This document shows positions 9,041-58,563 of a stretch of 64,000 nucleotides of DNA, piece by piece. Position 1 is the stretch's first letter, and each line of letters begins with the position of its first letter. The notes under the pieces are model-generated. The model was not told where the DNA came from, made no database searches, and saw only the letters and a list, made by a program, of their open reading frames with translations. The DNA lies in the NCBI GenBank assembly GCA_036874045.1, contig CM072337.1, positions 5,766,001-5,830,000 on the forward strand, in the 5' to 3' direction. The position numbers and the translations under genes are program-made. The stretch is from Cymodocea nodosa. Lineage: Eukaryota > Streptophyta > Magnoliopsida > Alismatales > Cymodoceaceae.

Positions 9041-9060
9041 AAAGTTAAGTATAGGGGAAG
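9041..9060 (+). other. Polypurine tract before 3' LTR
   Basis: Purine-rich AAAGTTAAGTATAGGGGAAG ends at the base before the LTR start TGTTTAGAATG. Homologous tract at 56531-56550 reads AAAGTTAAGTATGGGGGAAG. Likely plus-strand primer of family G. Confidence 0.75.
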
Positions 9061-26625: not shown

Positions 26626-26935
26626 TCACAATTTCCAATTAATGTGATTCATTAATTAGTAACATAAAAACAAAAATTAACATTAATACTTAACCTGCTA
26701 CTCGACTAGTTAAGTGGTAACTTAACAGACTAAGTTTTTTGAGTTAAACTAAAACTCCACAAACTTGAGGACAATAATAAAAACTATTTTTGTTATATGC
26801 TTAGAGTTTTCAACGTTTTGTTGTTGTTTTTTTTATTTATATTTTTCTATAGTCTATATATATATTATTAATAATAATCACTAACTTCATTCTACTTCCC
26901 TCCTATAAGAGGTATCAATTTCATTTATATTTCTA
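26626..26935 (-). other. Spacer between gag and F-box ORF (family G)
   Basis: Non-coding, colinear with 45768-45988. It holds a cluster of short inverted motifs at 26695-26770 (TTAAGTGGTAACTTAAC, GAGTTAAACTAAAACTC). No ORF. Confidence 0.55.
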
Positions 26936-28265: not shown

Positions 28266-29229
28266 TATATTAAATTTCAGAAGTTAATACATATGCAATG
28301 CTTAGCTCTGATGATATTTGAAGTCATTGACAGATGAAGTTCAATCAATTGCTCCTCCTTTTAGTTCACCAACGAGTGCTCTTCTCTTCACTTGATATTG
28401 GTATCTAGTTTATAACATTCTGTTTTACTTTTATAATGCTCATCCATGTTGTAGATATATCTCATTGCAAGAACGTGTCTTATAACGTGTAGTATGATTC
28501 CTATATTTATTATGAATGCATGCACCACTTTTAATTTTAAATTCTAGTAACCGCTAAGCACACAAAGTCTTATTCGTGGAAAGAATATTAACCATTCTGC
28601 TAACTCTATAGACTAACTTTGTTGAGTTACAAATAACTCAACGGAGTGACTTTGGTTACTATTTCTAACTTAATGAATTAACCTCGTTTAGTTAATAGTT
28701 AACTCAATGAACTAGCTCAGGCTTCTATTCCTTAACTCTATAGATTAACTTCGTTGAGCTATAGATAACTCAATGAAGTGACCTTATATTCTATTACTGA
28801 CTTTGTAGAGCTAAGCTAACTCAATGAACTAAGTTCATGGAGTTAATACTTAGGCAATTTTTCACTAAGAAACACACGTCTCAAATTAACTTTCTATATA
28901 CTTCTTGCATTTCATTTTGTATATTACAACATGAATATGGTTAAATACATAATCATTCATGTAATTAATTGATGTTCATAAAGAAAAGTTCATATCATTT
29001 CACTACATTTTTAATTATCATATTTCACATGGTAATATAATTTTCAAACAAATATATATATATGTTTAGAATTCCAATACACTTTGAATTAAAATAATTA
29101 TTCACAATCATATTGATTGTCAAAATTAAAATTTCAAAAGCATATTGATTGTCAAATAAGCGTACAAATATAGATATTGTTTGATTTACAAATGTGTAAC
29201 TTCAGTTATTACAAATTCCTACAAATTAA
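28266..29229 (-). other. Spacer between ORF1 and gag (family G)
   Basis: About 960 bp, colinear with 43370-44440 of the plus-strand copy. It contains a conspicuous cluster of short inverted motifs at 28595-28860, with at least six units of the type GTTGAGTTA / TAACTCAACG separated by about 10-25 bp. No ORF is conserved among copies. Confidence 0.6.
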
Positions 29230-31095: not shown

Positions 31096-31128
31096 TAATT
31101 AATTCTAGAGTAACTTTGTTATTAGGTT

Positions 31129-33185: not shown

Positions 33186-34984
33186 CTTCCCCCATACTTA
33201 AATTTTGCTAGTCCCTTAGCAAACTAAGATCTAACTAGTTAGTCTTTCTAAAGTTGCTAGAATTAAGTCTTCATTTTGTATCTTCAGAATACATAAATTA
33301 GATTACTATATAGATATTCTGTATTTTTTAGCAATCTATTTTAACATTGTTTTCTACTCTTCAACCTGCAAATATATTTAAAACATATGTAAATTACATA
33401 CAAAATATATTAGCATCACATAGGTGGTAATTATATTATCCTTTTTTTCTTCTTTTCAACATCTATTATCCTGAATTATCTAATATGATTTCCAGAATAA
33501 ATTTCAACTACATATGAATCAAAACACAATCCAATTCAATATGATTAAAACAAGTAGAATAATGAATTGTATCTCAAATAAACAACTTCAAAAGTCTATT
33601 CTAGATTCATACTTCAATAATCTTAGATAACAGAAAATATACTTGATTCAAAAGATATCTGTATTTCACAAAACACTTTTATCTTTTCAGAATAGTATAT
33701 GCATATTTGTACTTTAAAAGTTAATTTGAAAAGATTGAATCAAACAAGAGCTTTCTAGTGTACCCATGTATCAAGCTTTCAATCAACAATCTCAAATCTG
33801 ATCAAGATCTTAGGTTGCTAGATTTAAAGAGTCCTTTTTGAGGTCAACAATCCTTACATACCTATCTGCTCAAGTATAAAAGGCTCGTGATCAAATAATT
33901 CAATAAACTCTCAAAGTTTTTCTCTTTTTTTCTTTCTTTTCTTTTCAACATAGTATGTATACATATTTCATTAATACAGATGCAATAAAACACAAATCTC
34001 ATATAATCCTGCTTCTATTATTTACTGAAAATATGAATCCATATCAATAAGTTCATACTTTTGTTGTAGTTTAATAAGATTTTAGATAATTTACTGAGTT
34101 TTAGTTAAGCATTCTGATTTTTTTTTAAAATAATCAAACTGTTAAATTCATAAAATTTAGCAAAAACATAAGATACTATATCTAGATTTGTATTAACTGT
34201 AAAATTTTTGTAGCATCTTATATACGCTTCTAAATTTAACATTCAAGTAGTTACAGGTATTAAAAATTTTACAGTCTCAATTATTGGATAGTTCAAGAAA
34301 TTTCGGTTAGTTATAGCAAATTCAAAAAATTTTTCAATTTCCATAGAATTTTGTAGCACCATCCTAGTTCCTCTAATTAACAAAATTACTTGGGTTTTAA
34401 TCTAATTGCCTCCCCCCCATACCTATATTTTGCATTCTCCTCAATGTAAAAGATTTTACAGTAAATACAGTAAATGTAGCAGGCATGAATATTGTTTTGT
34501 TGACTTAGCACCTAACTCAATGAACTAAGTTCGTTGAGTTAATGAATAACTCCGCAAACTAAGTTTAAATGTAAATTCAGGATAAGTAATCAATTACATA
34601 CCTTGTTCTTTTGTATCTCCTTCAATATCTCCTAACTTTTGATTCTGAAAAACTTTTCATTCACAAATAAAAACAGAATATATAACAAAATAACATTTAA
34701 CAACAAAACATAAATTGTTAAATTAGTGTCTTGTGTGGAACCTAGACTCCTATGCCTTTGGTGGCTCACAAGCAAGCCAATTGGTTTCCTAGAATAGATA
34801 CCAACAAACTAGATTGATATTTTGTTTGTTTTCTTTTCTTTTCTTTTTATAGAATAAAACAAAAACTAACAAATTTTTTTCTTTTCTAAAAAAATAAATG
34901 CAGATTACACACAACATTAAAAGTACAAAATCACAATTTAAGAGCATAATTGAAAAGTAGTAACAAGTGAAATAAATGTGTCAC
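33186..34984 (-). other. Family G 3' non-coding region
   Basis: Inverted equivalent of 7171-9060, with the LTR-proximal purine tract (plus-strand view CTTCCCCCATACTTAAATTT at 33186) and the inner one (TGCCTCCCCCCCATACCTAT near 34410, then CATTCTCCTCAATGTAAAAG). Poly-T and poly-pyrimidine runs near 33915-33950 and 34830-34880. No ORF supported. Confidence 0.65.
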
Positions 34985-35360
34985 TCCAAGCAAACCTTTT
35001 AGGCATAATTCTTCTTGCTATTAATTCTATTTTAATGCAGTCTACTTTCCTTTTTAACTTGTAAACTTACAGTATGTTATCAATACTAAATATAAGTATA
35101 TTTCCATTAATGAAATGAAATGCAGAAAGGGATCCTTTTTTGTTCCAAGATAATATTGTTGTTTCTATTTCTACATCTATTTCAATATATTCCTCTTCCC
35201 ACTTCCATTCATTTAAGTCTTTTATAATCCATATTTGAAATTTCATCAATTCATCCCACCATATTATCAGACATAAAGTAGGATCATCATATTCATTATA
35301 CCACATTCCTAATTGAATTTTATCATGTTCTATAGAAGGTGGTTTAGCTATGTCATACAT
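34985..35360 (-). pseudogene. F-box-associated ORF of family G, C-terminal third
   Basis: Open frame of about 97 codons from 35360: IAKPPSIEHDKIQLG, then WYNEYDDPTLCLI, WWDELMKFQIWIIKDL, and LSAFHFINGNTLIFSIDNIL. This is the second half of the FBA-like domain ('LCL....VEIWVMKEY' core plus the last two strands). The normal stop codon position reads TGG. Upstream it is joined to spacer DNA rather than to gag, so gag and the first two thirds of this ORF were lost by deletion. The best preserved stretch across all six copies. Confidence 0.65.
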
Positions 35361-38963: not shown

Positions 38964-40515
38964 TGCATAGTAACAACTCATTGAGTTACAGGTTTAAAAG
39001 TATAAAAAGATCACGTGAGAACTCATTAAGTTAGTATTATACACGTGTTGAATTTAAATATTTTATTATGTCACATGAGTTGCACATATTTAATTCATTA
39101 AATTAGCATAACTATATACGTTGAGTTACTTGATTACACACTAAGGTAATGCGTTGTGTTAGTATTACAAGCTTATAAGTTATTTCTTTATTTCACGTGA
39201 TACATATATTATTATTTATATCAAGTCTGTTGAGTTAAGCTTAACTTAATGAGGTAAGTTCGTTAAGTTACAATTAAGTTAATGAAGTAAGTCTATTGAG
39301 TTACACTAACTCCATAGACCTATTATTTTCTAATATTCAAATGTGAGTAGTTGTAAAAATAAGAAATTCAAAGGAAAACTATGATTGCACGTATCATGTA
39401 GGATTTAAATCATAGAATGAAGATGAAATCACCATCATTAATACGAATGAAGGAGATCCAATTGATCATTTAGGCGGAAGTAGTTATTATTGAAAGAAAT
39501 ATAAAAAGAAAAGAGAAAGAACGAAGAATAAGTGTGGAGAACCACACTAACTACAACAAACATCAATTGTTCCTTGAAGCGCCACCACACCACCACCAAA
39601 AAATGAGTATTTTATTATTATTTTAAGGACACATATCGTGACTTGGAAACTTGACTTAAGTTGTCTTTCAGAAGGTTAGAAGCTAACTATCTAAAATGTG
39701 TTCAAGCATCAGATAGTTATGTTTTCAAAATATCTGAAATACCCTTTTACATATTTAAAAGTGAAAAAATTATTATATGCAAATTCACAAAGTTACTCAT
39801 GTAGGGTTACGAAACCTTTGTAAAGTTTTAGTTAAGTTTATGGATACTCGTAAGTTTACGAAGTTAAGGTTACGAAACCTCATTAAGTAGAATTATGCAC
39901 AGGTGAATTTAAATGTTTTATTATATCACATGATTTGCACATGTTTTATATTAAGTCCATTGAATTAAGTTTTACTCAACGAGGGAAGTCCATTGAGTTA
40001 CACTAACTCCACGGACTAGCTATTTTCTAATATGTCACTATTATTAGTTGCAGAAATAAGAAATTTAAAGAAAAACCATGATTGCAAGTATCATGTCGGA
40101 TTTAAATCGCAGAATGAAGAAGAAATCTCATCGTTGATATGAATAAAGGAAATCCAACCGATCATTTAGGTAGAAGCGGTTACTACTAAAAGAAATATAA
40201 AAAGAGGGGAAATACGAAGAAAGAGGGTAGAAAGGTATGGAGAACCGCACTAACTTTAGGAAGCGTCAGAAGTTTCCTAAAGGTCTACAACACTACCATA
40301 ATCACCAACTATCAGAGGTTTGTGAGGATACTTTCTAGATGTCGGGTTGATTTCGAGCCAAACATGGTGACTAACAACTATTGTAAGGAGTGATCACATC
40401 ACAAGAAGGGAAGCCAATTTCACCAAGCACCAACTCATCTCTCAAGAGATCATAAAGCTTCTAATTTGGTTTTGGGTTGATGCCAATATACTGAAGAGGA
40501 GACCAACTTACAAGT
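38964..40515 (+). repeat. Two family G LTR fragments in tandem, plus orientation
   Basis: 38964-39602 matches the LTR from about 170 bp inside its start (equivalent to 9230-9830), ending in the CCACCACCACC block. 39603-40515 begins again earlier in the LTR (GAGTATTTTATTATTATTTTAAG, equivalent to 56818) and runs to ACCAACTTACAAGTCTTGG (equivalent to 57735). Both are on the strand of the ORF1 that follows at 40516, so they are remnants of the 5' LTR of this plus-strand copy, duplicated or partly converted. The LTR end and primer site are missing. Confidence 0.7.
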
Positions 40516-43369
40516 CTTGGTAAGAAAATTAGAAATACAACTAGGGAAAAATAGCTAGAAAAGGTAGAGTCTGACCTCTTCTTTTTTGTGAAAGTTTTAG
40601 TAGATTTGAATGTCAAAATACTTGCAATATGGAAACAAGAATACGAGTGGCAACAAAAACTACTGTTAATAGGGAGAGAAGAATCAAACTAAACAATGAG
40701 GTTGCCCTAGAATTTATTAGATGCAAGTCCAAACTATGATTCATACAAACTATAGTTACACATGCGAGGATTCGACATGAGCAACAATGAAGAGAACAAG
40801 TTGAAGTGCCTACAGAAGAAGAGTAGCAATCAGAACCTTCATACCAACAACAACAGAGAGAGGAAATAGAAGTGTCTGTAGTAGTAGAGTAACAGTTGGA
40901 ACCTTTATACCAACCACAACTAGGAGATAAAGTTGTAATCACAGGTCTAGGATTTAAGGAGGAAAAAGAATTAGAAAAGTTAGTTAAACTCTAAAAATAT
41001 CAAGGTGTTGATGAAACCCTAACAAGAGTTAAAGCAATTATTCTATTTTACGGAATCCAAAGGAAAAGGATCCAAGAAAGAGTACAAGTAAGAATTAATA
41101 TTAAATTACAATAACACCAAGAAGCAGCTAGAGCACCAGTTGCAAGAGAAGTTGAGGCTAGTCCTTTGAGACCAGCAAATATAAAGGAAGAAGTAAAATA
41201 GGAAGAGCCAAAACCTATGGCTCAAGGGCCTAAAGAGCTCATTTTTGTTGACTTACTATCTGAGGAAGAAAAAGTAAGGGTAGTATTTACAATAGGGCAT
41301 AAAGAGCCCATTTTTGTAGATTTATTATCAGAAGAAGAAGAAGATCAGGAGCAACAAAGAGAAGAAGAAAAACAAGCTGAAATTAGTTTGCAACCTAAAG
41401 AAGTTGAAAAGAAAGTAAGGGTAGAATCTGTTGTGCCCAAGACTCCATCCCAATCTACCACTAAATTAAAAAGAACAATAACAATGGAGATTAGTTGTGA
41501 GGAGGAAGAAGAAAGGGAAAGTTGAATAGAAGAGCACAAAATAGGAAGAAAAAAATTCAATAGATTCCACTAAAGAGAGAAACTCTTTAGCAATTTATGG
41601 AGAAAATATAAGATAAAAGTATAGAAAGTTCTATAGGCTCTCCATCACAATTTAGAGTAGAAGAACAGGAATCTTCAAAACATTTTCAACAACCTCAACA
41701 TCAAGTTTAACATTCTAAAGAAAAATTTATGGAACAAACCCCTAAAGAGCAACAAATTCAACTCCTTGACCTGTCTGAAGCAATAATTCTAAATAAAGTT
41801 CATTTCTAGAGTTAGGAAGCATACAATAAGTATCAAGAAATAGAAGTACAACATTATTTACAGTAGGCCAGTAGATTGGACTAGAATAGAAGATATTAGA
41901 GAATTATTTGAATTTCAGAGTCTATTGGAATTTATTCCAAAGCAAAAAGCGTATGTAGTTTAATTCCACTAAAGAGAGAAACTCTTCAGCAATTTATGGA
42001 GAAAATATAAGATAAAAGTATAGAAAGTTCTACAGGCTCTCCATCACAATTTAGAGTAGAAGAACAGGAATCTTCAAAACATTTTCAACAACCTCAACAT
42101 CAAGTTTAACATTCTAAAGAAAAATTTATGGAACAAACCCCTAAAGAGCAACAAATTCAACTCCTTGACCTGTCTGAAGCAATAATTCTAAATAAAGTTC
42201 GTTTCTAGAGTTAGGAAGCATACAATAAGTATCAAGAAATAGAAGTACAACATTATTTACAGTAGGCCAGTAGATTGGACTAGAATAGAAGATATTAGAG
42301 AATTATTTGAATTTCAGAGCCTACTGGAATTTATTCCAAAGCAAAAAGGGTATGTAGTTTAATTCCACTAAAGAGAGAAACTCTTCAGCAATTTATGGAG
42401 AAAATATAAGATAAAAGTATAGAAAGTTCTACAGGCTCTCCATCACAATTTAGAGTAGAAGAGCAGGAATCTTCGAAACATTTTCAACAACCTCAACATC
42501 AAGTTTAACATTCTAAAGAAAAATTTATGGAACAAACCCCTAAAGAGCAACAAATTCAACTCCTTGACCTGTTTGAAGCAATAATTCTGAATAAAGTTCG
42601 TTTCTAGAGTTAGGAAGCATACAATAAGTATCAAGAAATAGAAGTACAACATTATTTACAGTAGGCTAGTAGATTGGACTAGAATAGAAGATATTAGAGA
42701 ATTATTTGAATTTCAGAGCCTACTGGAATTTATTCCAAAGTAAAAAGGGTATGTAGTTTATGAAAATCTAGTGCCCTATTTTTATGCAAATTTAAGAGAG
42801 GAAGAAGGAAATTTATTTTCAAATGTGGAGGAAGTTAATATACAGATAACATCCGATCTTCTCCAAAACTTATTTGGATTAAAAAAATGAAGGAATTGAA
42901 ATTCTAGAAAAACAACTGCAATAGAATGGATTGAATAGGAAATTAAGCAGTACATAGTCAGTGATCCTCGTGTGCCATTACTTAACAAAATGAAGTATTT
43001 AAATGGAAAGACACAAATGGTGGCAACTATACTGGTACAAGCTATTTATCAAAGATTAGGTCATGAAATTGAACTGAGTTAATTTGTCAAGTGGGTCACC
43101 TATGCAGTTGTTAACAGAATTCAAATAAATTGGTGTAAAGTAATAATTTCCAAACTGAGAGCAGTAAAGAAGAAATTATTTTATGGAGGTTTGATTCTAC
43201 TATTGATGGTGGAAGAAATAGAATCATTTCTATGAAAGAATACAAAAATTATAATGCTATTAGTACTTTTATTGTTGGACCTTCTAGAGACTTTATAGGA
43301 GCTATAGAATAGATAAATCAATTAGAAAAATTCTAGAAGGAAGTAGATGAACTTAGGAAGAAAGATTAA
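40516..43369 (+). pseudogene. Family G ORF1 with a triplicated central segment
   Basis: Plus-strand ORF1. A basic N-terminal part and Gln-rich middle are followed by two SUMO-interaction-like motifs, ELIFVDLLSEEE (41235-41270) and EPIFVDLLSEEEEDQ (41304-41348), in an open frame of 102 codons. Then comes a 399-bp unit present three times (41564-42757) and the C-terminal domain: FYANLREEEG, NVEEVNIQIT, then AIEWIE, KMKYLNGK, MVATILVQAIYQRLGHEIELS, VTYAVVNRIQINWCK, KKKLFYGGLI, with a stop at 43367-43369. That domain resembles the 'putative plant transposon protein' family. Stops shared by the three units show that decay preceded the triplication. Role unknown. Confidence 0.7.
41564..42757 (+). 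repeat. Three tandem copies of a 399-bp unit
   Basis: ATTCCACTAAAGAGAGAAAC starts units at 41564, 41963 and 42362. The units are almost identical (a handful of substitutions, such as CTTTAGC/CTTCAGC and GTTCATTTC/GTTCGTTTC) and 399 is divisible by three, so the frame is kept. Each begins in the acidic part of ORF1 and ends inside the start of the C-terminal domain. Other family copies have the unit once. Confidence 0.92.
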
Positions 43370-44440
43370 ATATATCATTCATCTACTTGTAATATGAAAG
43401 TATTTGATTGTATGTAATGCAAACTATATATGTAAATGAAATTTTGAACATCAATATACTTTTGAATTCGTATGTTTGTGAATGAATGATTTAATTTAGA
43501 ACTATATTGAAGATAAATTTTGTATATGTATTTGTTTAAAGTTTTGCGGGACAAGTTTTCAAAATTTTATGAATGATGTGGTTAAATGCACGATGATTTG
43601 ATAATATCTGAATATATCTACATACTGAAAAGTAAAATTTAATTTCTATATAACAGGAAATGAACTATGAGTTAAATATACATATAAGGTTCATATTGAA
43701 ATGAATTTAAATTGAAACACTACATTAATTCTATGTATTTAACTATATTTAAGTTGATAATATGTAGGAAAAGAAATTTAGAAATTAATATGAGAAGTAA
43801 GTTGCTTAGGAAAATTTACTAAATGTTAACTCAACGATGTTAGTTTGTGGAGTTAACCTTAACTCCATGAAATCAGTAATAAAATATAAGGTCACTCCAT
43901 TGAGTTAACTGTAACTCAACAAAGTTAGTCTGTGGAGTTAGCAAATAGAAACCTGACGCTAGTCTGTTGAGTTAGCAGTAACTCAATGAGGTTAGTTCGT
44001 TAAGTTAGGAATAGTAAGTAACCGAGGTCACTTCATTGAGTTAACTGTAATTTAACAAAGTTAGTTTATGGAGTTAACTGAATGATAATTCTTTTCTCCA
44101 TGTACAAAACTTTATGGGTTTAGTGGTTACTGAAATTTAAAAAAATGAGAAGTGGAACACATCCATAAAAACAGAAACCATACCGCATGCTAATAAGACA
44201 TGTTCTTGCAATGAGATTCATTTGCATTATGGACGTGCATTATAAATACAGAACAGAATATTATTTACTAGTTACCAACAATTGAGGAAATACAATAGAA
44301 CTCACTAGGGGAACTAGAAGGAGAAGTAACTGATTCAACTTCATCCGTCAATAGTTGTTGATTTAGAACAAAGCTTCAGACTATTATGTAATTAATTTTC
44401 TACAATTTACTATATGTTGAGAGTTTATGAGCATATGGAG
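43370..44440 (+). other. Spacer between ORF1 and gag (family G)
   Basis: Non-coding DNA of about 1.07 kb, colinear with 28266-29229 inverted. A dense cluster of short inverted motifs lies at 43825-44085: alternating GTTGAGTTA, GTGGAGTTAAC and TAACTCAAC/TAACTCCAT units. No ORF is conserved. Confidence 0.6.
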
Positions 44441-45988: not shown

Positions 45989-46310
45989 ATGGAATTGATG
46001 AAATTACTACTAGATGCATTGAGAGAAGTACTACATAACTTACTAGCTAAAGATCTGTGTAGATTGTATTGTGTATCAAGACAAATTAGAGAATGGGTCA
46101 GAGAAAAATATTTTCATGGACTACAAGTTGCAAAGATGATTAATATTAGAGATGGATTTTTATAGAAGTCATTTAATCATAGTTCTATTAGTTATGAATA
46201 TTTGAATATAGAAGAAACTACTAGAATTTCACCCAATACATTAGAAGGAATAAAGCATATTATGGGGATAGATGAAAGATTAATTGTTTACAGAACTAAA
46301 CCAAGGTATG
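45989..46310 (+). pseudogene. F-box/FBA gene carried by family G: N-terminal F-box half
   Basis: 5' half of an ORF that reads as a plant F-box protein. From ATG at 45989: LLLDALREVLHNLLAKDLCRL then YCVSRQIREWV, which fits the F-box pattern 'LPxDLLxEILxRLPVKDLLRFRCVSKxWRxLI'. It continues KMINIRDGFL, a TAG stop where another copy has Trp (46162), KSFNHSS, RISPNTLEGIKHIMGIDERLI, and stops at KPRY where a retroelement of the same family is inserted (46311). The second half resumes at 53873 after the same GTATG. F-box proteins recruit substrates to SCF ubiquitin ligases; whether this one ever did is unknown. Together the halves span about 360 codons, the usual size for F-box/FBA proteins. Confidence 0.7.
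46306..46310. other. Target-site duplication, left copy (GTATG)
   Basis: GTATG immediately before the LTR start at 46311 and again at 53873-53877 immediately after the LTR end at 53872. Five base pairs is the normal duplication length for LTR retrotransposon integration. Removing the insertion and one GTATG restores the F-box reading. Confidence 0.85.
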
Positions 46311-48417
46311 TGTTTAGATTGGAAAACTTGTTTAATTTGTTTTTATGTTTATATTAATAAGTTCTTTTAGAAGTAAACAAACAACTTTTCACACAAATTA
46401 GATATTAAGTCTAATTTGTATTTTTAACTATAAGTGTATATTGTATTTGTATGCAAGTACAGGTCGACCCCATAGAGATTGAGTAAGAATTGTGTACTAT
46501 TTCGATCTTTATATTGGAGTTTATATGTGTTCATTTAAGCACTTCGTTGAGTTACAACTAACTCAACGAACTTAGTTTGCGGAGTTATGGTTAACTCAAC
46601 GAACTAACCTTGTGGACTTAAGTTAACTCCACGAGTCTATCTTTCTAGTTAAATATTGCTATTCACAGAGGAATTCGACCATCCATTGGATGGTTCCATA
46701 GAATGTAAATAACATCAATTAAGCTTTTAATGTTAGTTAATTTGAGATTTGTCATTTATCAATGCTAACATTCAGATATTTCAAATAGTAACCATTAAGA
46801 TTTCTTGAGTATTCTAGATGAATCAATTTTATTAAACATTAAAACTATTTTCTATTTTCTGAATCAAACAAATATAAAGCATTCACAATATTGACAACGA
46901 TAACATTAATCATGATACAAAACAAACAACACAACACATTAATACTAAATGTAAACACAGATAATTAATTATTTTTGGTATTTTTGTTTTGATATGTTTT
47001 TAAAGATGAGTGAAAGGTGACAAGTAAAAATCTCTATTGATAGTAAGAACTTCTATCACTATATGCAATGTGATACACCATTGAAAACTTAATCACTTAC
47101 AATCTTGCCTCCTCTTCCTATAGAATCGTGAACCAAGACTTGTAAGTTGATCTTCTCTTTAGTATACCAATATCAACCTGAAACCAAGGCTAGAAGTTTT
47201 ACAATCTCCTGAGATATGAGTCGGTGCTTGGTGAAAATGACTTCCCTTCCTGCGACGCGATCACTCCTCACAATGGTTGTCAATCGCTGTATTTGGTTTG
47301 GAATCGACCCAACATCCAAAAAGTATCTTCACAAATCTTCGATGGTTGGTGATCTTGGTGGTGTTGTGGAGCTTCAGGGAACTTTCGATACTTCCTATAG
47401 TTAGTGCAGTTCTCCACCCACACTTTTTCATCTTTCTCTTCTTCTTTTATATTTCTTTCAATAGTAATTGTTTCTACTTAAATGATCGGTTGGTTTTCCT
47501 TCATTCATATCAATGATGGTGATTTTTTCTTCATTCCATGAGTTAATTCCTACGTGATACGTGCAATCGTGGTTTTCCTTCGTATTTCTTGTTTTTGCAA
47601 CTACTATAGTGACATGTTAGAAAATAACTAGTCCGTAGAGTTAGTGTAACTCAACGGACTTTCTTTGTCGACTTAACTATAAAACACGTGCAGTAAAGAA
47701 ATACTTATAAGCTTATAACATTAATACAACATGTTACCTTAGTGTATATTCAAGTAACTCAACACGTATAGTTGTGCTAACTTAACGAGTTAAACATGTG
47801 CAGCTCACGTGACATAATAAAACATTTAAATTCAACATGTGCATAATTCTAACTTAACAAGTTCAAATGTTTTAGATAGTTATAACTATAAATATCTAGA
47901 ACTTACATACATTTCAGATAGTTAGCACCTAACCTTTCAAAAGATAACTTATGTCAAGTTTCCAGATCGTAACATGTGTCCTCAAAAAGTTTTATGATAA
48001 AAAGATATTTCAGATACTTGCAAACCTAACTATCTGATGCTCAGACACATTTTAGATAGTTAGCACCTAACTTACTAAAAATCCACTTAAGTCATATATT
48101 AATGTTACAACACATGTACTCTAGGAAATAATAAAATATTCATTAAGCATTTAAAACATAACTGTTTGGTACATGAAATGTAACTCTCTGAAATAATAGA
48201 AAATTCAGATACTTAAGAATTTCAAAGCCTGTAACTCACCGATAGTTCAAAAATGTACCTAATTAACACTAATTCCCTGAAATTATGCAGATTCTTTCAT
48301 TAAAGCATATAATAGTGCAATTATAACATAATGGCTTAATTCTCATATGATAAGCTAAATATTATGTAATTAACTATTATTTAACTATTAATATTATGTA
48401 CTTTTTCATTCTAAATA
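46311..48417 (-). repeat. Family G LTR (outer, 3' in element direction)
   Basis: 2107 bp. Plus-strand view: starts TGTTTAGATTGGAAAACTTG, ends CATTCTAAATA before the purine tract (CTTCCCCCATACTTAAC). Colinear with the other LTRs; contains the antisense ORF start at 47216 and short inverted motifs at 46545-46640 and 47635-47680. It lacks the Sirevirus-like segment of the copies at 31129 and 36929. Confidence 0.8.
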
Positions 48418-48978
48418 CTTCCCCCATACTTAACTTTTGCTAGTCCCTTGGCAAAACTACTAAGATCTAACTAGTTGATCTTTTTATAGTGCTAGAACTA
48501 ATTCTTCATTTTGTATCTTCAGAATACATAGATTAGATTAATGTAAAATATCCTGTATTAATTCAGTAACCTAATTTAACATTGTTTTCTTCTCTCTAAC
48601 TTGCAAATATATTTAAAACATATGTAAATTACATATAAAATATACTAACATCACATAAGTGGTAATTATATTATCATTTTTTTTCTTTCAAATATCTGTT
48701 ATCCTAAATTTTCCAATATGATTTTTAGAATAAATTTTAGCTACATACGAATCAAAACACAATTCAACTCAATATCATTAAAATAAGCAGAATAATGAAA
48801 TTATCTCAAATAAATAACTTCAAAAGTTTAATTCTAGATTCATATTTTGGTAATCATAGATAATAGAAAATATACTCAATTCAAAAGGTATCTGTATCTT
48901 CACAAAACACTTTCATCTTTTCAGAACAATATATACATATTTTTACTTTAAAAGTTAATTTGAAAAGCTTGAATCATT
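48418..48978 (-). other. Family G 3' non-coding region, outer piece
   Basis: Equivalent to 51049-51604, with the purine tract next to the LTR. It ends at GCTTGAATCAT where the inner LTR begins; the sequence that should follow (ACAAGAGCTTTC) is found at 51610. No gene. Confidence 0.7.
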
Positions 48979-51048
48979 GTTTGGTGTGAAAATCTTGTTT
49001 GATTTGTTTTTATACTTGTATTAAAAAATTCTTTTAGAAGTAAACAAGCAACTTTTCACACAAATTAGATATTAAGTCTAATTTGTATTTTAACTACAAG
49101 TGCACAATGTATATTATATTTATGTGTAAGTACAGAGATTGAGTAAGAATTATGTACTATTTTGATTTTTTTATAATGGAGTTTATATGTGTTTAGTTAA
49201 GCACTTCATTGAGTTACAGTTAACTTAACGGACTTAGTTCGTGGAGTTATGGTTAACTCAATGAACTAACCTCGTGGACTTAAGTTAACTTTATGAGCCT
49301 ACCTTTCCAGTTAAATATTGTTATTCATAGAGAAATTCGGTCAACTATTGGGTGGGTCCACAAAATGTATATTGTATTTGTCATTAAGCAACACTAACAT
49401 TCAGATATTTCAAATAGTAACCATTAAGATTTTTAGTATTTTGTATAAATCAATTTTAGTAAACATTAAAACTATTTTCTATTTTTTGAATCAAACAAAC
49501 ATAAAACAATCACATTATTGACAATGATAACATTAATCACGATACAAAACAAACAATACAACACTTTAATACTAAATGTAAACATAGATAATTAATTGTT
49601 TTTGGTATTTTTGTTTTGATATGTTCTTGAAGATGAGTGAAAAGTGAAATATAAAAATCTTTATCAACAATAAGAACTTTCGTCACTACATGTGACATGA
49701 TTACACCATTGAAAATTTAATCACTTACAATCTTGCCTTCTCTCCTTGTAGAATCGTGAATCAAAACTTGTAAGTTGATCTCCTCTTTAGTATACTGTCA
49801 CCAACTTGAAACCAAGGCTAGAAGCTTTACAATCTCTTGAGATATGAGTTGATGCTTAGTGAAAATGACTTGCCTTCCTGTGACACGATCACTCCTTATA
49901 GGGGTTGTTAGTCACCATGTTTGGCTTGAAATCGACTCAACATTCGGAAAGTATCCTCACAACCTCCAATGGTTGGTGATTTTGGTGGTGGTGTGGAGGT
50001 TCAGGGAACTTCTGATGCTTCCTACAGTTAGCATGGTTCTCCACCACCCTCTCTTTTCATCTTTCTCCTCTTCTTTTATATTTCTTTCAATAGTAACTAT
50101 TTCTACTTAAATGATTGGTTGGATTTCCTTCATTCATATTAGTGATGGTAATTTCTTCTTCATTCCATAAGTTAATTCTTGCATGATATGTGCAATCATG
50201 TTTTTCCTTTGAATTTTCTATTTCTGCAACTGCTATAATGGTATGTTAGAAAATAAATGGTCTGTAAAGTTAGTGTAACTCAACGGACTTACTTCATTGA
50301 TTTAACTAAAACACATGCACAATAAAGAAATAACTTATAAGCTTATAACACTAACAAAACATGTTAATTTAATGTATATTCAAGTAACTCAACACGTAAA
50401 GTTATGCTAACTTAACGAGTTATACATGTATAGCTCACATGACATAGTAAAACATTTAAATTCAACATGTGCATAATTCTAACTTAACGAGTTCAGATGT
50501 TTCAGATAGTTACAACTATAAGTATCTGAAACTCACATGCATTTTGGATAGTTAGTACTTAACCTTCTAAAAAGATAACTTAAGTCAAGTTTCTAGATCA
50601 CGACATGTGTCCTTAGTTAGTTTTATGATAAAAAGGTATTTTGGATACTTGCAAACCTAACTATTTGATGCTCAGACACATTTCGGATAGTTACCAGATA
50701 ACTTACTGAAAATTCACTTAAGTCATGCATTAAAGTTACAACACATATGCTCTAGGAAATAATAAAATATTCTTTAAGCGTTTAAAACATAACTATCTGG
50801 TGCATGAAATGTAACTCTCCGAAATAACAGAAAATTCGAATACTTAGGAATTAAAAAGCTTGTAACTTATCGACAATTAAGAAATGTACTTAATTAACAC
50901 TAATTCCCTGAAATTATGTAGATTCTTTCATTAAGGCATATAATAGTGCAATTATAACATAATGACTTAATTCTCATATGATAAGCTAAATATTATGTAA
51001 TTAACCATTATTTAATTATTAATATTGTGCACTTTTTCATTCTAAACA
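48979..51048 (-). repeat. Family G LTR (inner)
   Basis: 2070 bp. Plus-strand view: TGTTTGGTGTGAAAATCTTG to CATTCTAAACA, with TG...CA ends. It interrupts the 3' non-coding region of the outer copy. Variants of the antisense ORF block at about 49850-50110 and short inverted motifs at 49205-49290. Confidence 0.8.
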
Positions 51049-52935
51049 CTTTCCCCATACTTAACTTTTGCTAGTCCCATAGCAAACTACTAAAATCTAA
51101 CTAGTTAGTCTTTCTAAAGTGCTAGAACTAATTCTTCATTTTGTATCTTCAAAATACATAGATTAGATTAATGTAAAGATATTCTATATTAATTCAGTAA
51201 TCTAATTTAACATTGTTTTCTCCTTTGCAACCTACAAATATATTTAAAACATATGTAAATTATATGAAAAATATACTAGCATCACATAGGTGGTAGTTAT
51301 ATTATCATTTTTTTCTTTTCAAACATCTGTTATCTTGAATTTCCCAATATGATTTCCAGAATAAATGTCAACTACATACGAATCAAGACACAATCCAACT
51401 CAATATGATTAAAACAAGTAGAATAATGAATTGTATCTTAAATAAACAACTTCAAAAGTCTAATTCTAGATTCATACTTCAGTAATCATAAATAACAGAA
51501 AATATACTCAATTCAAAAGATTTTTGTATTTTCACAATAAACTTTTATCTTTTTAGAACAGTATATGCATATTTTTACTTTAAAAGTTAATTTAAAAAGC
51601 TTGAATCATACAAGAGCTTTCTAATGTACCCATGTATTGAGCTTTCAGTCTACAATCTTAGATTTGATCAGGATCTTAGGTTGTCAGATTTAAAGAGTCC
51701 TTTTTTAGGTCAACAAACCTTATATATCTATTTACTCAAGTATAAAATGCTCGTGATCAAATAAATCAATAAACTCTCAAAGTTTTTCTCTTTTTTTCCT
51801 CTTTTTTTTTCTTTTAAACACAATATATATATGTATTTCATTAATACAGATGCAATAAAACACAAATCTCATATAATCTTTCTTCTATAATTTACTGAAA
51901 ACATGAAGCCATATCAATAAGCTCATACTTTTTCTATAGTTTAATAAGATTTACACATAAATAATTCTACAAGTTTAATTAATCAAATTAAATGTATCAT
52001 TGATCATATGTATTTCATTTAATCCAAAAAGCAACATTTCAGCTCTTTTAGGATTTCAGATAATTTCTTGAGTTACAATTAAGCGTTCTGATTTCTTTTA
52101 AAAATTGTTAAACTCATAAAAGTTAATAAAAACATAAGATATTATATCTAGATTTGTATTAATGGTAAAATTGTGTAACATCTTATATAAGATTCTAAAT
52201 ATAACATTCCAGCAATTACAATTCTTAAAAATTTTACAATTTCAATTATCAGATAGTTATAACAAATTCATAAAAAATTTTCAATTTCCACAAAAATTTG
52301 CAGCACAATCCTAATTCCTCTAATTAATAATATTACTTGGATTTTAATCTAATTACCTCCCCCCATACCTACATCTTGCATTGTCCTCAATATAAAAAAA
52401 TTTATAGTAAATACAGTAAATGTTAGTAGGCATGAATATTGTTTCATTGACTTAACACCTAACTCAACGAACTTAATTCATTGAGTTAATGAATAACTCT
52501 ACAAACTGTGTTTAAATATAAATTCAGGATAAGTAATCAATTATATACCTTGTTCTTTATATCTCCTTCAATATCTTTTAACTTTTGATTCTGAAAAGCT
52601 TTTCATTTACAAATAAAAGAAAAATATATAACAAAATAATAGCTTAACAGCAAAACATAAATTATTAAATCAATGTCTTGTGTAGAACCCAAGCTCCTAT
52701 GCCTTTGGTGGCTCACAAGCAAGTTAGTTGGTTTCCTAGAACAGATACTAACAAACTAGATTGATATTTTGTTTTTCTTTTCTTTTCCTTATAAGATAAA
52801 TAAAACAAAAACTAAAATTTTTTTTTTTTCTTTTCTAAATATAAATGCAAAGTACACACAACATTAAAATTACAAAATCACAATTTAAGAACATGATTGG
52901 AAAGTAGTGACAAATGGAATAAATGTGTCAGTCCA
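51049..52935 (-). other. Family G 3' non-coding region, inner piece
   Basis: Full-length 3' non-coding region, inverted relative to 54642-56550. Both purine tracts are visible (plus-strand ACTTTCCCCATACTTAACTT at 51048 and ACCTCCCCCCATACCTACAT near 52355). Poly-T/C run near 51785-51815. No ORF supported. Confidence 0.65.
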
Positions 52936-53137
52936 AGCAAACTTTTTAAGCATAATTCTTTTTGCTATTAATTCTATTTTAATGTAGTCTACTCTCCTCT
53001 TTAACTTGTAAACTTCCAATATGTTATTGATACTAAATATAAGTGTATTACCATTAATGAATTAAAATGCAAAAAGAGATCCTTTTCTATTCCAAGATAA
53101 TGTAGTTGTTTCTATTTCTACATATATTTTAATATAA
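52936..53137 (-). pseudogene. F-box-associated ORF, C-terminal remnant in the nested copy
   Basis: About 200 bp matching the last 65 codons of the F-box/FBA ORF (reverse strand: the block before NGNTLIFSI and the final LKR..LITR end). It breaks off at 53137, where LTR sequence from the middle of family G begins. Short and decayed; identified only through alignment with 54440-54641. Confidence 0.6.
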
Positions 53138-53872
53138 AACACGTGCAATAAAGAAATACTTATAAGCTTATAACACTAACACTACATGCTACCTTAGTGT
53201 ATATTCAAGTAACTCAACATGTATAGTTATGGTAACTTAACAAGTTAAACATGTGCAACTCACGTGACATAATAAAGCATTTAAATTCAACATGTGCATG
53301 ATTCTAACTTAACGAGTTTAGATGTTTTGGATAGTTATAACTATAAGTATCCGAAACTTACATGCATTTCAGATAGTTAGCACCTAACCTTCTGAAAGAT
53401 AACTTAGGTCAAGTTTTCAGATCGCGACAAGTGTTCTTAGGAAGTTTTATAATAAAAAGATATTTCAGATACTTGCAAACCTAACTATCTGATACTTAGA
53501 CACATTTCAGATAGTTAGCACCTAACTTACCAAAAATCTACTTAAGTCATGTATTAAGGTTACAACATGAGTACTCTAGGAAATAATAAAATATTCATTA
53601 AGCGTTTAAAACATAACTATCCGATACATAAAATGTAACTCTCCAAAATAATAGAAATTTCGGATACTTAAGAATTTCAAAGCCTGTAACTCACCGACAA
53701 TTCAGAAATGTACTTAATTAACACTAATTCCCTGAAATTATGTAGATTCTTTCATTACGGTATATAATAGTGCAATTATAACATAATAGCTTAATTCTTA
53801 TATGATAAGCTAAATATCATGTAATTAACCATTATTTAACTGTTAATATTATGAATTTTTTTATTCTAAATA
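53138..53872 (-). repeat. Family G LTR, truncated 5' LTR of nested copy
   Basis: Matches 47683-48417 (TAAAACACGTGCAATAAAG to TATTCTAAATA). Its right end is the outer boundary of the nested insertion and is followed by GTATG. The rest of this LTR was deleted together with the element's internal region. Confidence 0.8.
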
Positions 53873-54641
53873 GTATGCTATTCTGTTACCAGATATTTTT
53901 ATTAGAAATCCTATTACTAGAGAAGAATGGAATATAGGAAGACCTAATATTTTGAAGTACCAACTGAAAATTGTGGGTTAGCTTTAACTTTTTTTGATAA
54001 GAATTTTGCTATTCCTGAAAAATTATATTATTGGAGACCAACTGGAAATTGGGATGAAAGACTATGTTTAAGTGTTTACAAATTTATGAATAGATCTTGG
54101 AATGAAAATGTTATGGTATATTCAAGAGAGAAAACATTAGTTAACAATATACATGTAAAACTTGATGGATATATATATCTAGTCATAGATATATCAATTG
54201 CATTTAGATCTAATTTACACATAGTGAGCATAGACAGTTATGATGACTATAGAAATATTACCTATACCTAAAGATATAGCTGAACCACCATCTGCAGAAT
54301 ATGATAAAATTCAATTAGGAGTATGGTATAATGAATATGATGATCCTACTTTATGTCTAGTAAGATGGTGGGATGAATTGATGAAATTTCAAATATGGAT
54401 TATGAAAGACCTAAGTGAATGGAAGTGGCAAGAGGAATATATTGAAATATATGGGGAAATAGAAACAACTACATTATCTTGAAATAGAAAGGGATCCCTT
54501 TCTGTATTTCAATTCATTAATGGTAATACACTCATATTTAGTGTTGATAACATACTGCAAGTTTACAAATTAAAAAGGAAAGCAAACAACATTAAAATAG
54601 AATTAATAACAAGAAGAATTATGCCTAAAGGTTTTGCTTAG
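53873..54641 (+). pseudogene. F-box/FBA gene carried by family G: C-terminal FBA half
   Basis: Second half of the ORF interrupted at 46310. After GTATG: AILLPDIFIRNPITREEW, NIGRPNIFEV, the 'CGLALTFFDKN' strand, YYWRPTGNWDERLCLSVYKF, NRSWNE, a VKLDGYIYLVID strand and SNLHIVSIDS. A one- or two-base loss near 54243 shifts frame; then EILPIPKDIAEPP, WYNEYDDPTLCLVRWWDE, KFQIWIMKDLSEW, a TGA at 54481, LSVFQFINGNTLIFSVDNI, and a stop at 54639-54641. These follow the FBA domain plan: '..NPSTREWxxLP', 'VYSLKTxSW', 'VNGALHW', 'IISFDLxxExFxEIPLP', 'LCLV...VEIWVMKEY..W'. Known FBA domains bind glycans or protein substrates; nothing here fixes a target. Confidence 0.7.
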
Positions 54642-56550
54642 ATTAACATGTTTATTCCATTTGTTATTACTTTTCAGTCATGTTCTTAAACTATGATTGT
54701 GTATTTTTAATGTTTTGTGTGTATGCTGCATTTGTTTTACAAAATAAAAAACAAAATATCAATCAATTTGTTGCTATCTATTTTGAGAAGTCAACTAACT
54801 TGCTTGTGAGCCACTAAAGGCATAGGAATCTAGGTTCTACATAAGATACATATTTAACAATTTATGTTTTGTGTTAATTGTTATTTTGTTATATGTTTTA
54901 CTTTTATTTGTGAATGGAAAGTTTTTCAGAATCAAAAGTCGAAAAATATTAATGGAGATATAAAAGAACAAGGTATGTGATTGATTACTTTTTCTGAATT
55001 TATATTTATGCATAGTTCGTGGAGTTATTCATTAACTCAATGAACTTAGTTTGTTGAGTTAGGTGCTAAGTCATCGAAACATTATTCATACCTGCTAATA
55101 TATACTCAATTTACTATAAATCTTTTACATTGAGGATAATGCAAAATGTAGGTATGGAGGAGAGGTAATTAGATTAAAATCCAAGTAATCTTGTTAATTA
55201 TAGGATTTAGGATTGTGTTGCAAATTTCTATGGAAACTGAAAAATATTTTTATGAATTTTACTATAACTTTTCAAAAAAATTATGGTAACTATCTAAAAA
55301 AATTTTCTGAAACATTATGAAAGCTGAAGGACTATAACTGCCTAAATGTTATAATAATGATTTTATACAAGATACTATAATACTTTATTATAAATAGAAA
55401 TATGGTATAGTATCTTATGTTTTTACTAAATTTTATGAGTTTAACAATTTTATGATTTTAAAAGGAATTCAGAATGCTTAACTGAAATTCAAAAAATTAT
55501 CTAAATTCCTAAAAGAGCTGAAATGTTGATTTTTGGATTAAATGAAATACATTTGATCAAGGATACATTTAATTTGATTGATTAAACTTGTAGAATGATT
55601 TATATGTGTACATCATATTAAACTACAAAAAAAGTATGAACTTATGAATATAGATTCATATTTTTCAATAGATTGTAGAAGCAAAATTATATGAGATTTG
55701 TGTTTTATTGCATTTGTATTAATGAAATACATATATATATTATGTTGAAAGGAAAAAAATGAGAAAAGAGAAAAACTTTGAGAGTTTATTGATTTGTTTG
55801 ATCATTAGCCTTTTGTACTTGAGTAGATAGGTATGTAAGGATAATTGACCTAAAAAAGGACTCTTTAAATCTAGCAACCTAAGATCTTGATTAGATCTAG
55901 GATTGTTGACTGAAAACTCGATACATGAGTACACTAGAAAGCTCTTGTATGATTCAAGCTTTTCAAATTAACTTTTAAAGTAAAAATATGCATATATTGT
56001 TCTTAAAAGATGAAAGTATTTTATTAAAAGTACAGATATCTTTTGAACTGAGTATATTTTTTGTTATTTATGACTACTGAAATATGAATCTAGATTAAAC
56101 TTTTGAAGCTATTTATTTGAGATACAATTCATTATTCTTGTTTTAATCATATTAAGTTGAATTGTGTTTTGATTCATATGCAGTTGAAATTTATTTTAGA
56201 AATCATATTGGAAAATTTAGAATAATAGATGTTTGAAAAAAAAAAAGAAATTTTTTTTAGTATAACTACCACCTATTTTATGCTAGTATATGTTGTATGT
56301 AATTTACATATTTTTGAAATATATTTACAGGTAGAGGAGGAAAACCAATGTTAAATTAGATTACTGAATTACAGAGAATATCTTTATATTAATCTAATCT
56401 TAGTATTCTGAAGATACAAAATGAAGAAATATTTTTCATAAGGAATACTGATTTATGAAGAAAAGAAATAGTTCTAGCATGTTAGACAAACCAGTTAACT
56501 AGATCAAATTAGTTTGCTAAGGGACTAGCAAAAGTTAAGTATGGGGGAAG
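54642..56550 (+). other. Family G 3' non-coding region with two purine tracts
   Basis: Colinear with 7171-9060. Inner tract near 55128-55165 (ACATTGAGGATAATGCAAAA, then GTATGGAGGAGAGG), outer tract AAAGTTAAGTATGGGGGAAG ending at 56550. A short inverted-motif pair at 55013-55060 (TTCGTGGAGTTA...TTGTTGAGTTA). No ORF is conserved with the other copies. Confidence 0.7.
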
Positions 56551-58563
56551 TGTTTAGAATGAAAAAGTATATAATATTAATGGTTAATTGCATAATATTT
56601 AGGTTATCACATGAGAATTAAGCCATTATGTTACAATTGCATGATTATATGCTTTAATTGAAAATTGTGCATAATTTCAATGAATTAACATTAATTAAGT
56701 ATATTTATAAATTGTCGGTGAGTTATAGACTTTTTAATTTTTTAAGTATCCGAAATGTCTATTATTTTGGAGAGTTTTATTTTATGTACTAGATAGTTGT
56801 GTTTTAAATGCTTAAAGAGTATTTTATTATTATTTTAAGAACACGTGTTGTGACCTGGAAACTTGACTTAAGTTGTCTTTCGAAAGGTTAGAGGGTAACT
56901 ATCTGAAATGTGTTTAAGCATTGGATAATTATGTTTTCAAAGTATTTGAAATACCCTTTTATAGGTTTAAAAATGAAAAAATTATTACATGCAAATTTGT
57001 AAAGTTACTCATGTAAGGTTATGAAACCTTCGTAAAGTTTTAGTTAACTTTACAGATCCTCATAAACTTACGAAGTTAAGGTTATAGAACCTCATTAAGT
57101 AGAATGACGCACGTGTGAATTTAAATATTTTATTATGTCACATGATTTGCACATGTTTTATATTAAGACTATTGAATTAAGTTTTACTCAATGAGGGAAG
57201 TCCATTGAGTTACACTAACTCCATGGACCAACTATTTTCTAATATGCCACTATTAGTAGTTGTAGAAATAGGAAATTTGAAGAAAAACCACAATTACACG
57301 TATCTTGCAAGATTTAAATCATAGAATGAAAAAATCACCATTGTTGATATAAATGAAGGAAATACAATCGATTATTTAGGTAGAAGTAGTTACTACTAAA
57401 AAAAATATAAAAAGAAGAGGGGAAATACGAAGAAAGAGGGTGGAAAGATGTGGAAAATCGTGCTAACTACAGAAAGCATCAAAAGTTCCCTGAAGCTCCA
57501 CAACACCATCATAATCACCAACTATTAGAGATCTGTAAGGATACTTTCTGAATGTTGGGTCGATTTCGACCCAAACATGGTGACTGACAACCACTGTAAT
57601 GAATGATCGCATCATAGGAAGAGAAGCCATTTTCACCAAGCACCGACTCATCTCTTAAGAGATTGTAAAGATTCTAGCCTTGGTTTTGGATTGATGCTAA
57701 TATATTAAAAATGAGATCAACGTACAAGTATCGATTCACGATTCTATAGGGAGAGGAGCCGTGACTGTAAGTGATTAAGTTTTCAATGGTGTAATCACGT
57801 CGCATGTAGTAATGGAAGTTTTTACTGTTAATAGAGAATATTTACATTTCACCTTTTGTTTATCTTTAGGAACATATCAAAACAAAAAAATACTGAAAAC
57901 TAATTATTAATGTTTATAGTTAGCATTTATGTGTTGTATTGTTTATTTTGTATTGTGATTAATGTTATCATTGTTAGTATTGTAAATGTTTTGTATTTAT
58001 TTGATTTAGAAAATAGAAAATAATTTTATTGATTACTGAAATTGATTCATATAGAATACTCAAAAATCTGAATGGTTACTATTCGAAATATCTGAATGAT
58101 AGTGTTGATTAATGATAAATACCATATTAACTAACATTAAAAGCTTAATTGATGTTATTTACATTCTATGAAATCGCCCAATGGATGGCTAAATTCCTTT
58201 GTGAATAGCAACATTTAATTGGAAGTTACAAGTTAGACTTGTGGAGTTAACTTAAGTCCACAAGGATAGTCTGTTAAATTAATTATAACTCAACAAACTA
58301 AGTCTATTGAGTTAACTGTAACTCAATAGAGCATTTAATTAAACACATAAAACTCTAGTTATAAAAATCAAAATAGTACATTATTCTTATTGAATCTCTG
58401 TAGGATTAACCTGTACTTGCATACATATATAGTAGAGACTATGCACTTGTAGTTAAAAATAAATTAGATTTAATGGCTAATTTATGTGAAAAGTTGTTTG
58501 TTTACTTTTAAAAGAAATTATTAATATAAACATAAAAACAAACCAAATAAGTTTTACCAAACA
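56551..58563 (+). repeat. Family G 3' LTR (2.01 kb)
   Basis: Starts TGTTTAGAATGAAAAAG right after the purine tract and ends ACCAAACA at 58563. It interrupts the second gypsy element exactly inside its pre-protease motif (see 58564-59418). The following 5 bp are AGGTA; the matching left flank is not preserved because the 5' LTR of this copy is truncated. Contains the antisense ORF start at 57651 and short inverted motifs at 58230-58330. Confidence 0.82.

What the first reader, a model, noticed from the sequence alone, without database searches (positions are those of the whole stretch)
45989..54641. F-box/FBA gene carried as a standing part of a gag-only gypsy retroelement family
Seen: an ORF of about 360 codons follows gag in the same orientation in two independent copies (44441-54641 plus strand; 28265-25565 minus strand), and pieces of it occur in four more (6646-7170, 16353-16873, 34985-35360, 52936-53137). 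Its start fits the F-box pattern (LLAKDLCRL then CVSRQ) and the rest fits the FBA plan (NPITREEW; VYKF..RSW; LDGYIYL; EILPIP; LCLVRWW..FQIWIMKDL). Known: plant F-box genes recruit targets to SCF ubiquitin ligases, and retroelements sometimes capture host genes, but usually as single events. Inferred: here the captured gene travels with the family, in the place where pol would be expected. A retroelement-borne F-box protein could act on host silencing factors or on its own Gag. I know of no described family with this layout.
Basis: partly seen in the sequence, partly recalled or inferred. Interest (0 to 1): 0.88.

Follow-up and report, generated by a model that had tools for sequence, protein, structure and literature searches.

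The report
Retrotransposon family carrying an F-box gene
In this plant genome a very large family of jumping elements carries a gene that looks like a plant protein-disposal adaptor (F-box), kept under selection next to a capsid gene that lies, unusually, behind the polymerase genes instead of in front of them.

Summary
The core observation holds; the stated layout does not. F-box (PF00646), FBA_1 (PF07734) and Retrotrans_gag domains are real in the window, but no copy there has an open ~360-codon frame, and the named one is split by a nested relative (46311-53872, 5-bp duplication GTATG). In the 374.6-Mb genome the F-box/FBA gene is a high-copy repeat (5364 first-look candidates; all 150 scored are 82% or more identical); all 30 loci cut out belong to one LTR family. 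Fuller copies are not gag-only. One insertion with both LTRs and a 5-bp duplication, and seven other loci, read all or part of: protease, RT, RNase H, integrase, env-like ORF, gag, F-box, polypurine tract, LTR. In 29 of 30 protease loci no gag lies between 5' LTR and protease. So gag (capsid part) and F-box sit behind pol. Subfamily differences in the F-box are mostly synonymous against expectation (omega-like 0.35-0.41, P 0.0008 or less) while private changes are neutral (1.04): it was selected as a working part. Likely an SCF adaptor used by the element; its target is unknown. No described match appeared in the searches made.

The parts
39602..40519 (+). Copy A: fragment of 5' LTR (matches 56814-57729)
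   Evidence: self-BLAST
40521..43731 (+). Copy A: env-like/ORF1 region, contains a 399-bp unit repeated three times (41564-42760)
   Evidence: same region lies between integrase and gag in L039/L041
43732..45760 (+). Copy A: broken gag region (Retrotrans_gag at 44692-44991)
45989..46310 (+). Copy A: 5' part of F-box gene, ATG at 45989; F-box domain about 46010-46114; stop at codon 59
46311..53872 (-). Nested insertion of the same family (N1 with N2 inside it) splitting copy A's F-box gene; duplication GTATG at 46306-46310 and 53873-53877; LTRs 48417-46311, 51048-48978, partial 53872-53129; FBA tail 53136-52854
   Evidence: unsplit homologue in copy D at about 16703-16699
53873..54722 (+). Copy A: rest of F-box/FBA gene, frameshifted
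54723..56534 (+). Copy A: 3' region; longest stop-to-stop frame on either strand 75 aa
56535..56550 (+). Polypurine tract TTAAGTATGGGGGAAG directly before 3' LTR
   Evidence: the same tract, with one base changed in the first, adjoins LTRs at 51049, 48418 and 33186 on the other strand
56551..58563 (+). Copy A: 3' LTR, begins TGTTTAGAATG, ends about CCAAACA
25253..31140 (-). Copy B (diverged subfamily): env-like region, gag 28951-26914, F-box/FBA about 26650-25565, heavily broken
4510..10863 (+). Copy C: env-like region, gag piece 6219-6645, FBA 6639-7167 (open 176 aa), 3' region, 3' LTR from about 9062
16352..16869 (-). Copy D: F-box/FBA piece without the nested insertion; gag piece 16989-18088 on + strand next to it (rearranged)
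31140..35355 (-). Copy E: FBA tail 35355-34821, 3' region, LTR about 33185-31140

Best explanation
The window holds decayed copies of a high-copy Ty3/gypsy LTR-retrotransposon family, probably of the Athila kind, that long ago took up a host-type F-box/FBA gene. Gene order in fuller copies: 5' LTR, tRNA-Asp-like primer site, short leader with a CCHC knuckle, protease, RT, RNase H, integrase, env-like ORF, gag (capsid part without knuckle), F-box/FBA, about 1.8 kb, polypurine tract, 3' LTR. Shown: this order in the copies read, a copy number in the hundreds at least (thousands of candidates), neutral decay of copies after insertion, and purifying selection on F-box and gag while subfamilies diverged. 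Inferred: gag and F-box are made from spliced or internal messages (T-rich tract and ACAG about 11 nt before the F-box ATG); the F-box binds SKP1 so that the protein acts as an SCF substrate adaptor, with the FBA part choosing the target. Guessed: the target is a host silencing or restriction factor, as with polerovirus P0, or else the element's own Gag. About 0.9 for standing selected part, 0.75 for gag and F-box behind pol on the same strand as the family's usual order (lowered from 0.8 on recounting), 0.6 for SCF adaptor, 0.25 for an anti-silencing target.
For: Domains; F-box E 1.6e-10, gag E 1.9e-16, RNase H E 7.4e-34 in natural frames of L039; RT E 1.8e-11, integrase core E 2.6e-12 in L041; gag E 1.2e-20 in L075. 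Copies: 5364 candidates, 150 scored, 82-100%; 23 of 30 FBA loci include at least part of the F-box 5' piece; 16 of 30 run unbroken into gag inside the 1.5-kb flank, some by only tens of bases, one more with a gap; 7 of the 8 PF00646 loci cut out are this element; 7 of 7 gag/F-box pairs within 3 kb same strand, gag first, 1.09-1.28 kb; 17 of 17 scored loci run gag to F-box on one strand, 5 of 17 reach back into pol. Whole insertion C5:3176210-3192941: LTRs 90.0% identical, ATATG on both sides. Protease upstream flank: LTR then leader in 29 of 30. Relatives with gag before protease in one frame: P0007, P0013, P0019; this gag aligns to P0007 with a gap where P0007 has its knuckle. Selection.
Against: FBA_1 is near its cut-off (21.6 vs 21.1 bits in the window piece; 16.8, below it, in L039). 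Protease scores below Pfam cut-offs (best E 0.0015; none in L075) and rests on 43% identity to P0013. Env-like ORF has no Pfam match above cut-off. One search, protease against gag/F-box/FBA within 15 kb: 5 same-strand pairs downstream (4 loci), 4 same-strand upstream (3 loci, two of them probably duplicates), 7 opposite-strand (6 loci, four of them at a steady 5.6-7.2 kb downstream); so these lists alone do not favour the same-strand order, and a turned-round module may exist; letters could not be fetched. One of the subfamily contrasts was not significant (main vs L001=L002, P 0.217). No host donor and no relative of the F-box protein was found. Only one insertion with both LTRs was read. 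The AlphaFold model failed (mean pLDDT 34.7). No expression or binding data.
Confidence: 0.75

Rival explanations
1. The F-box is a neutral passenger: one master copy captured it by chance and amplified it, with no use for the element.
For: Single changes within the main cluster are neutral (omega-like 1.04); window copies are broken; many of the 150 scored FBA matches hold stops. Whole-gene tests on shared sites inside the main cluster were not significant.
Against: Differences shared by two independent copies of diverged subfamilies are enriched for synonymous changes (omega-like 0.35 and 0.41; P 0.0002 and 0.0008), not far from gag (0.23), and third-position-rich; the one non-coding comparison (3' region, L001) shows no periodicity (P 0.73).
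Confidence: 0.1
2. env-like/gag/F-box is a separate non-autonomous element (TR-GAG type) that happens to be nested or fused next to pol elements.
For: No pol of this family was found in the window; 12 of 17 loci match only from the env-like region or gag onward; opposite-strand protease/gag pairs.
Against: L039 and L041 align to each other from pol to F-box (84.65% over 9264 columns) and no LTR match lies between pol and env-like region there; five more loci run from pol to F-box; L075 too; the C5 insertion has one LTR pair and one duplication around everything; 29 of 30 protease loci lack a gag of their own in front.
Confidence: 0.17
3. Selection seen on the F-box happened in host genes, and subfamilies captured different host F-box genes.
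For: No host donor could be compared; F-box matches are numerous (4219 first-look candidates).
Against: Copy B aligns to copy A continuously through gag, spacer and F-box; L002 likewise; gag shows the same kind of constraint.
Confidence: 0.07

Closest known systems
Athila / Calypso / Diaspora lineage of plant Ty3/gypsy elements (PMC1142308, passages seen)
   Same: LTRs TG..CA, tRNA-Asp-like primer site a few bases after the LTR, polypurine tract touching the 3' LTR, protease-RT-integrase order, extra ORF after pol in most members
   Different: There gag with a CX2CX4HX4C knuckle, protease, RT and integrase form one ORF with gag first; here the capsid gag is behind pol and env-like ORF, the knuckle stays before protease, and an F-box gene follows gag
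Plant LTR elements with additional ORFs (review PMC7264820, parts 1-2 of 3 read)
   Same: Extra ORF in the 3' part present in most copies of a family
   Different: No F-box example in the parts read; the ORFs listed there are env-like, antisense or of unknown origin
TR-GAG elements (search listing; passages of PMC11728184)
   Same: Window copies look like LTR plus gag without pol
   Different: Fuller copies have pol; extra F-box gene
Polerovirus P0, an F-box-like silencing suppressor (PMC6593998, abstract)
   Same: Parasitic nucleic acid carrying an F-box-type SKP1-binding motif
   Different: P0 is an RNA-virus protein without an FBA domain (recalled); function here untested

Membership tests
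LTR retrotransposon | LTR pair TG..CA with target-site duplication | tested here: met
   C5 insertion: LTRs 1843 and 1846 bp, 90.0% identical, ATATG both sides; nested window copy GTATG
Ty3/gypsy | integrase downstream of RT/RNase H | tested here: met
   L039 and L041: RVT_1, RNase H, then Integrase_H2C2 and rve
Athila lineage | RT phylogeny | not tested
   lineage assigned from gag relatives, primer site and protease-leader motifs; partly recalled
Athila lineage | gag before protease in one gag-pol ORF | tested here: not met
   29 of 30 protease loci: 5' LTR, 1.1-kb leader, protease, no gag; gag lies behind pol
TR-GAG | gag but no pol between LTRs | tested here: not met
   pol present in the fuller copies; met only by the decayed window copies
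Plant F-box/FBA protein | N-terminal F-box | tested here: met
   E 1.6e-10, 40.9 bits vs 20.5
Plant F-box/FBA protein | C-terminal FBA domain | tested here: inconclusive
   21.6 bits vs 21.1 in window piece; 16.8, below cut-off, in L039
SCF adaptor | binding to SKP1 | not testable with these tools
   needs a binding assay

The most novel reading that the evidence does not exclude
A successful plant retrotransposon lineage re-ordered its genome: it split gag, left the nucleocapsid-type knuckle before protease, and placed the capsid gene behind pol beside a captured host F-box gene, which it then kept under selection as an accessory protein that turns the host SCF ubiquitin ligase against a silencing or restriction factor.
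Probability: 0.3. Interest if true: 0.93.

Novelty: new variant of a known kind. Interest (0 to 1): 0.82.

Why it matters
Gene capture by retroelements is mostly reported in one or a few copies (PMC7264820). Here a host-type regulatory gene has been inherited by a whole high-copy family and shows the marks of selection inside it, so the question whether transposons carry their own tools against the host becomes testable. The displaced gag questions the rule that gag comes first and raises how the right Gag-to-Pol ratio is made. It also warns annotators: 7 of the 8 F-box loci cut out as best matches in this genome are transposon-borne.

Tried and rejected
Rejected: 'gag-only family' (pol found); 'F-box in place of pol' (it follows gag, both behind pol); 'neutral passenger'; 'open 360-codon ORF in the window'.

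Led nowhere: protein searches for F-box relatives (11 candidates, none; 798 candidates, none); PDB sequence search (none); viral contigs (none confirmed); AlphaFold on a natural 333-aa frame with 16 other pieces (mean pLDDT 34.7, so no fold search was made); codon-position tests between window copies alone (seven pairs, none below P 0.05, C vs B 0.052) and on shared sites inside the main cluster (whole gene P 0.106, FBA part 0.81, F-box part 0.02). Env-like and ORF1 pieces gave no Pfam match above cut-off. In one search the second non-coding stretch had no diverged copy to compare. A primer-site motif (three mismatches allowed) was found in 10 of 30 protease loci. Rows dropped: L024 (same place as L039) and loci with 400 or fewer matched columns; L008, L033, L041, L053 (near-duplicates or short); L001, L002, L004 kept out of the 'main' set; L024 and L033 left out. 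L045 is the protease query itself, and L049/L052 and L069/L070 look like duplicated places, so 29 of 30 is not 29 independent loci.
Full report
What is in the window. The window is 28.8% G+C, plant-like, and full of nested retroelements. Profile search of natural open pieces gives F-box (PF00646) at 45989-46162, FBA_1 (PF07734) at 6640-7167 and Retrotrans_gag (PF03732) at 44692-44991, each above its curated cut-off, FBA_1 only just. Element ends read TGTTTAGA...AAACA; a polypurine tract TATGGGGGAAG touches the 3' LTR; a nested copy at 46311-53872 is flanked by GTATG on both sides, while copy D shows the unsplit site. No window copy has the open frame of about 360 codons that was claimed.

The gene is a genome-wide repeat. 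The window lies in an unnamed 374.6-Mb genome. The FBA piece finds 5364 first-look candidates; all 150 scored match at E < 1e-93, the 149 outside the query at 82-90% identity over nearly the whole piece, on 20 of the 28 contigs. Gag gives 5177 candidates (150 scored) and protease 6664 (143 scored). Only the scored ones are proven. Of 30 FBA loci cut out (one is window copy C), all match the family's FBA/3' region, 23 include at least part of the F-box 5' piece, and 16 run unbroken into gag within the 1.5-kb flank (some by only tens of bases; L022 and L033 are near-duplicates), one more (L010) with a gap; 7 of the 8 PF00646 loci cut out are this element, the eighth (L005) is not. In the lists of top hits, 7 of 7 gag/F-box pairs within 3 kb are on the same strand with gag first, 1.09-1.28 kb apart.

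The family is not gag-only. Two longer copies (L039/L040, L041/L042) align to each other from pol to F-box, 84.65% over 9264 columns plus 92.5% over 520. L041 holds RT (E 1.8e-11) and integrase core (E 2.6e-12), both above cut-off; L039 holds RNase H (E 7.4e-34) and the integrase zinc domain (E 2e-9), then the env-like region, gag (E 1.9e-16) and F-box (E 1.6e-10). Upstream of L041, L044 holds protease (below Pfam cut-off, best E 0.0015; 43% identical to P0013 over 80 residues), a 1.1-kb leader, a tRNA-Asp-like primer site TGCCGTTGACGGGG (likeness to tRNA-Asp recalled) and a 5' LTR. That LTR (1843 bp) and the 3' LTR in L042 (1846 bp) are 90.0% identical over 1842 aligned bases (167 transitions, 17 transversions, K2P 0.110), with ATATG on both sides. 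At rates I recall (7e-9 or 1.3e-8 per site and year) that is about 8 or 4 million years, probably too old because transitions dominate. A third copy, L075, reads protease, RT, RNase H, env-like, gag (350-aa open frame, E 1.2e-20) and into the F-box; the integrase stretch of L041 has no match in it. A DNA search with the 9.9-kb L041 stretch scored 17 loci of 12303 candidates; 17 of 17 run from gag into the F-box on one strand and 5 of 17 reach back into pol, one of them only into the end of integrase (the best-scored are the longest, so 5 of 17 is no population estimate).

Gag is behind pol. [quoted passage not shown] the set includes the query and what look like two duplicate pairs). An exact CCHC knuckle (CEFCNLEGHDISDC type) is in the leader of 12 of 30 and in 0 of 6 of the downstream gags examined. 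Related gags from other plants and unnamed sources (19 found) carry knuckle, NPxWRN, LRSG and protease motifs in that order in one frame where long enough: P0007 and P0019 have all four, P0013 all but the knuckle. The element's gag has NPxWRN but neither knuckle nor LRSG, and aligns to P0007 with a gap at its knuckle; the LRSG motif stands before protease in the leader. Athila, Calypso and Diaspora have gag first in one gag-pol ORF (PMC1142308, passages). Gags that match P0007 through its knuckle as far as its LRSG motif also exist in this genome (72 scored of 10627 candidates, 38 of 72 reach query position 440 or beyond), so the search can see them; whether protease follows them was not tested.

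Selection. In the main cluster, 306 private changes in the F-box gene fall as expected without selection (58 synonymous, 224 non-synonymous, 24 stop; expected 60.2, 223.7, 22.1; omega-like 1.04). Differences fixed between the main cluster and two independent diverged copies are enriched for synonymous changes: B and L001, 22/38/2 against 10.9/45.8/5.3 (0.41, P 0.0008); B and L002, 24/36/3 against 11.1/47.2/4.7 (0.35, P 0.0002). Gag gives 30/21/0 against 11.8/35.8/3.5 (0.23, P 0.0002); private gag changes gave 0.71 (P 0.025), a slight departure from neutrality. Codon-position counts agree for B=L002 (P 0.004) and B=L001 (P 0.0006) but not for L001=L002 (28 differences, P 0.217); gag B=L002 P 0.001, and the one non-coding comparison P 0.73. 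Tests between window copies alone were not significant, nor was the whole-gene test on shared sites in the main cluster.

How it may work. The F-box ATG is preceded by AG in 17 of 22 sites found (L018/L041 and L024/L039 are the same places), mostly after a T-rich stretch ending ACAG or ATAG about 11 bases upstream: a splice-acceptor-like site, untested. The simplest working model is that pol comes from the genomic RNA and gag and F-box from spliced or internal messages, and that the F-box protein is an SCF adaptor. Viral precedents exist: polerovirus P0 binds SKP1 by an F-box-like motif and can target AGO1, though SKP1 binding was found to serve P0's stability rather than suppression itself (PMC6593998, abstract).

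What speaks against or stays open. In one search, protease hits against gag, F-box and FBA hits within 15 kb gave 5 same-strand pairs downstream (C5:3179158, C5:7459355, C5:11247596 twice, C15:13798779), 4 same-strand upstream (C10:2703887 twice, C1:9142812 and C1:9665660, the last two with the same spacing), and 7 on the opposite strand (6 loci). By my rough reckoning random closeness predicts about 2-3 opposite-strand pairs, but not so even a spacing. These lists sample about 2-3% of the candidates and do not by themselves favour the same-strand order, which rests on the eight loci read or aligned. The donor gene and the spread in other species are unknown.

Literature. Ten searches, seven of them combining F-box with retrotransposon terms, showed in their listings no described family with a resident F-box gene or with gag behind pol; subscription journals are mostly absent. 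PMC3726574 (passages) surveys captured genes of rice and sorghum LTR elements and its main text does not hold the word F-box; PMC8764390 (passages) mentions one F-box LTR-gene; PMC3852528 (passages) lists 10 F-box-type sequences among sunflower repeats.

Noticed in passing
G000 C15:7479817, C13:3203642, C15:9041352, C6:9115154: Protease hits with gag or F-box of the same family on the opposite strand 5.6-7.2 kb downstream: perhaps a subtype with the env-like/gag/F-box module inverted.
   Followed up: partly
41564-42760: 399-bp unit repeated three times, 97-99% identical, inside the env-like region of copy A.
   Followed up: no
15974-16510, 13130-13609, 14110-14445, 18002-18592: Copia-type pieces in or near copy D: gag PF14223 in 15974-16510, an open frame fusing the FBA piece to copia gag; RVT_2 in 14110-14445 and 18002-18592; 13130-13609 looks copia-like (not run).
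   Followed up: no
2788-3432: 215-aa frame with a CCHC zinc knuckle (E 7.7e-6), probably another retroelement gag.
   Followed up: no
58480-59088: 203-aa open frame overlapping the end of copy A's LTR, no Pfam match above cut-off.
   Followed up: no
G000 genome: 4219 first-look F-box candidates; 7 of the 8 cut out are transposon-borne, so F-box gene counts here may be inflated.
   Followed up: partly
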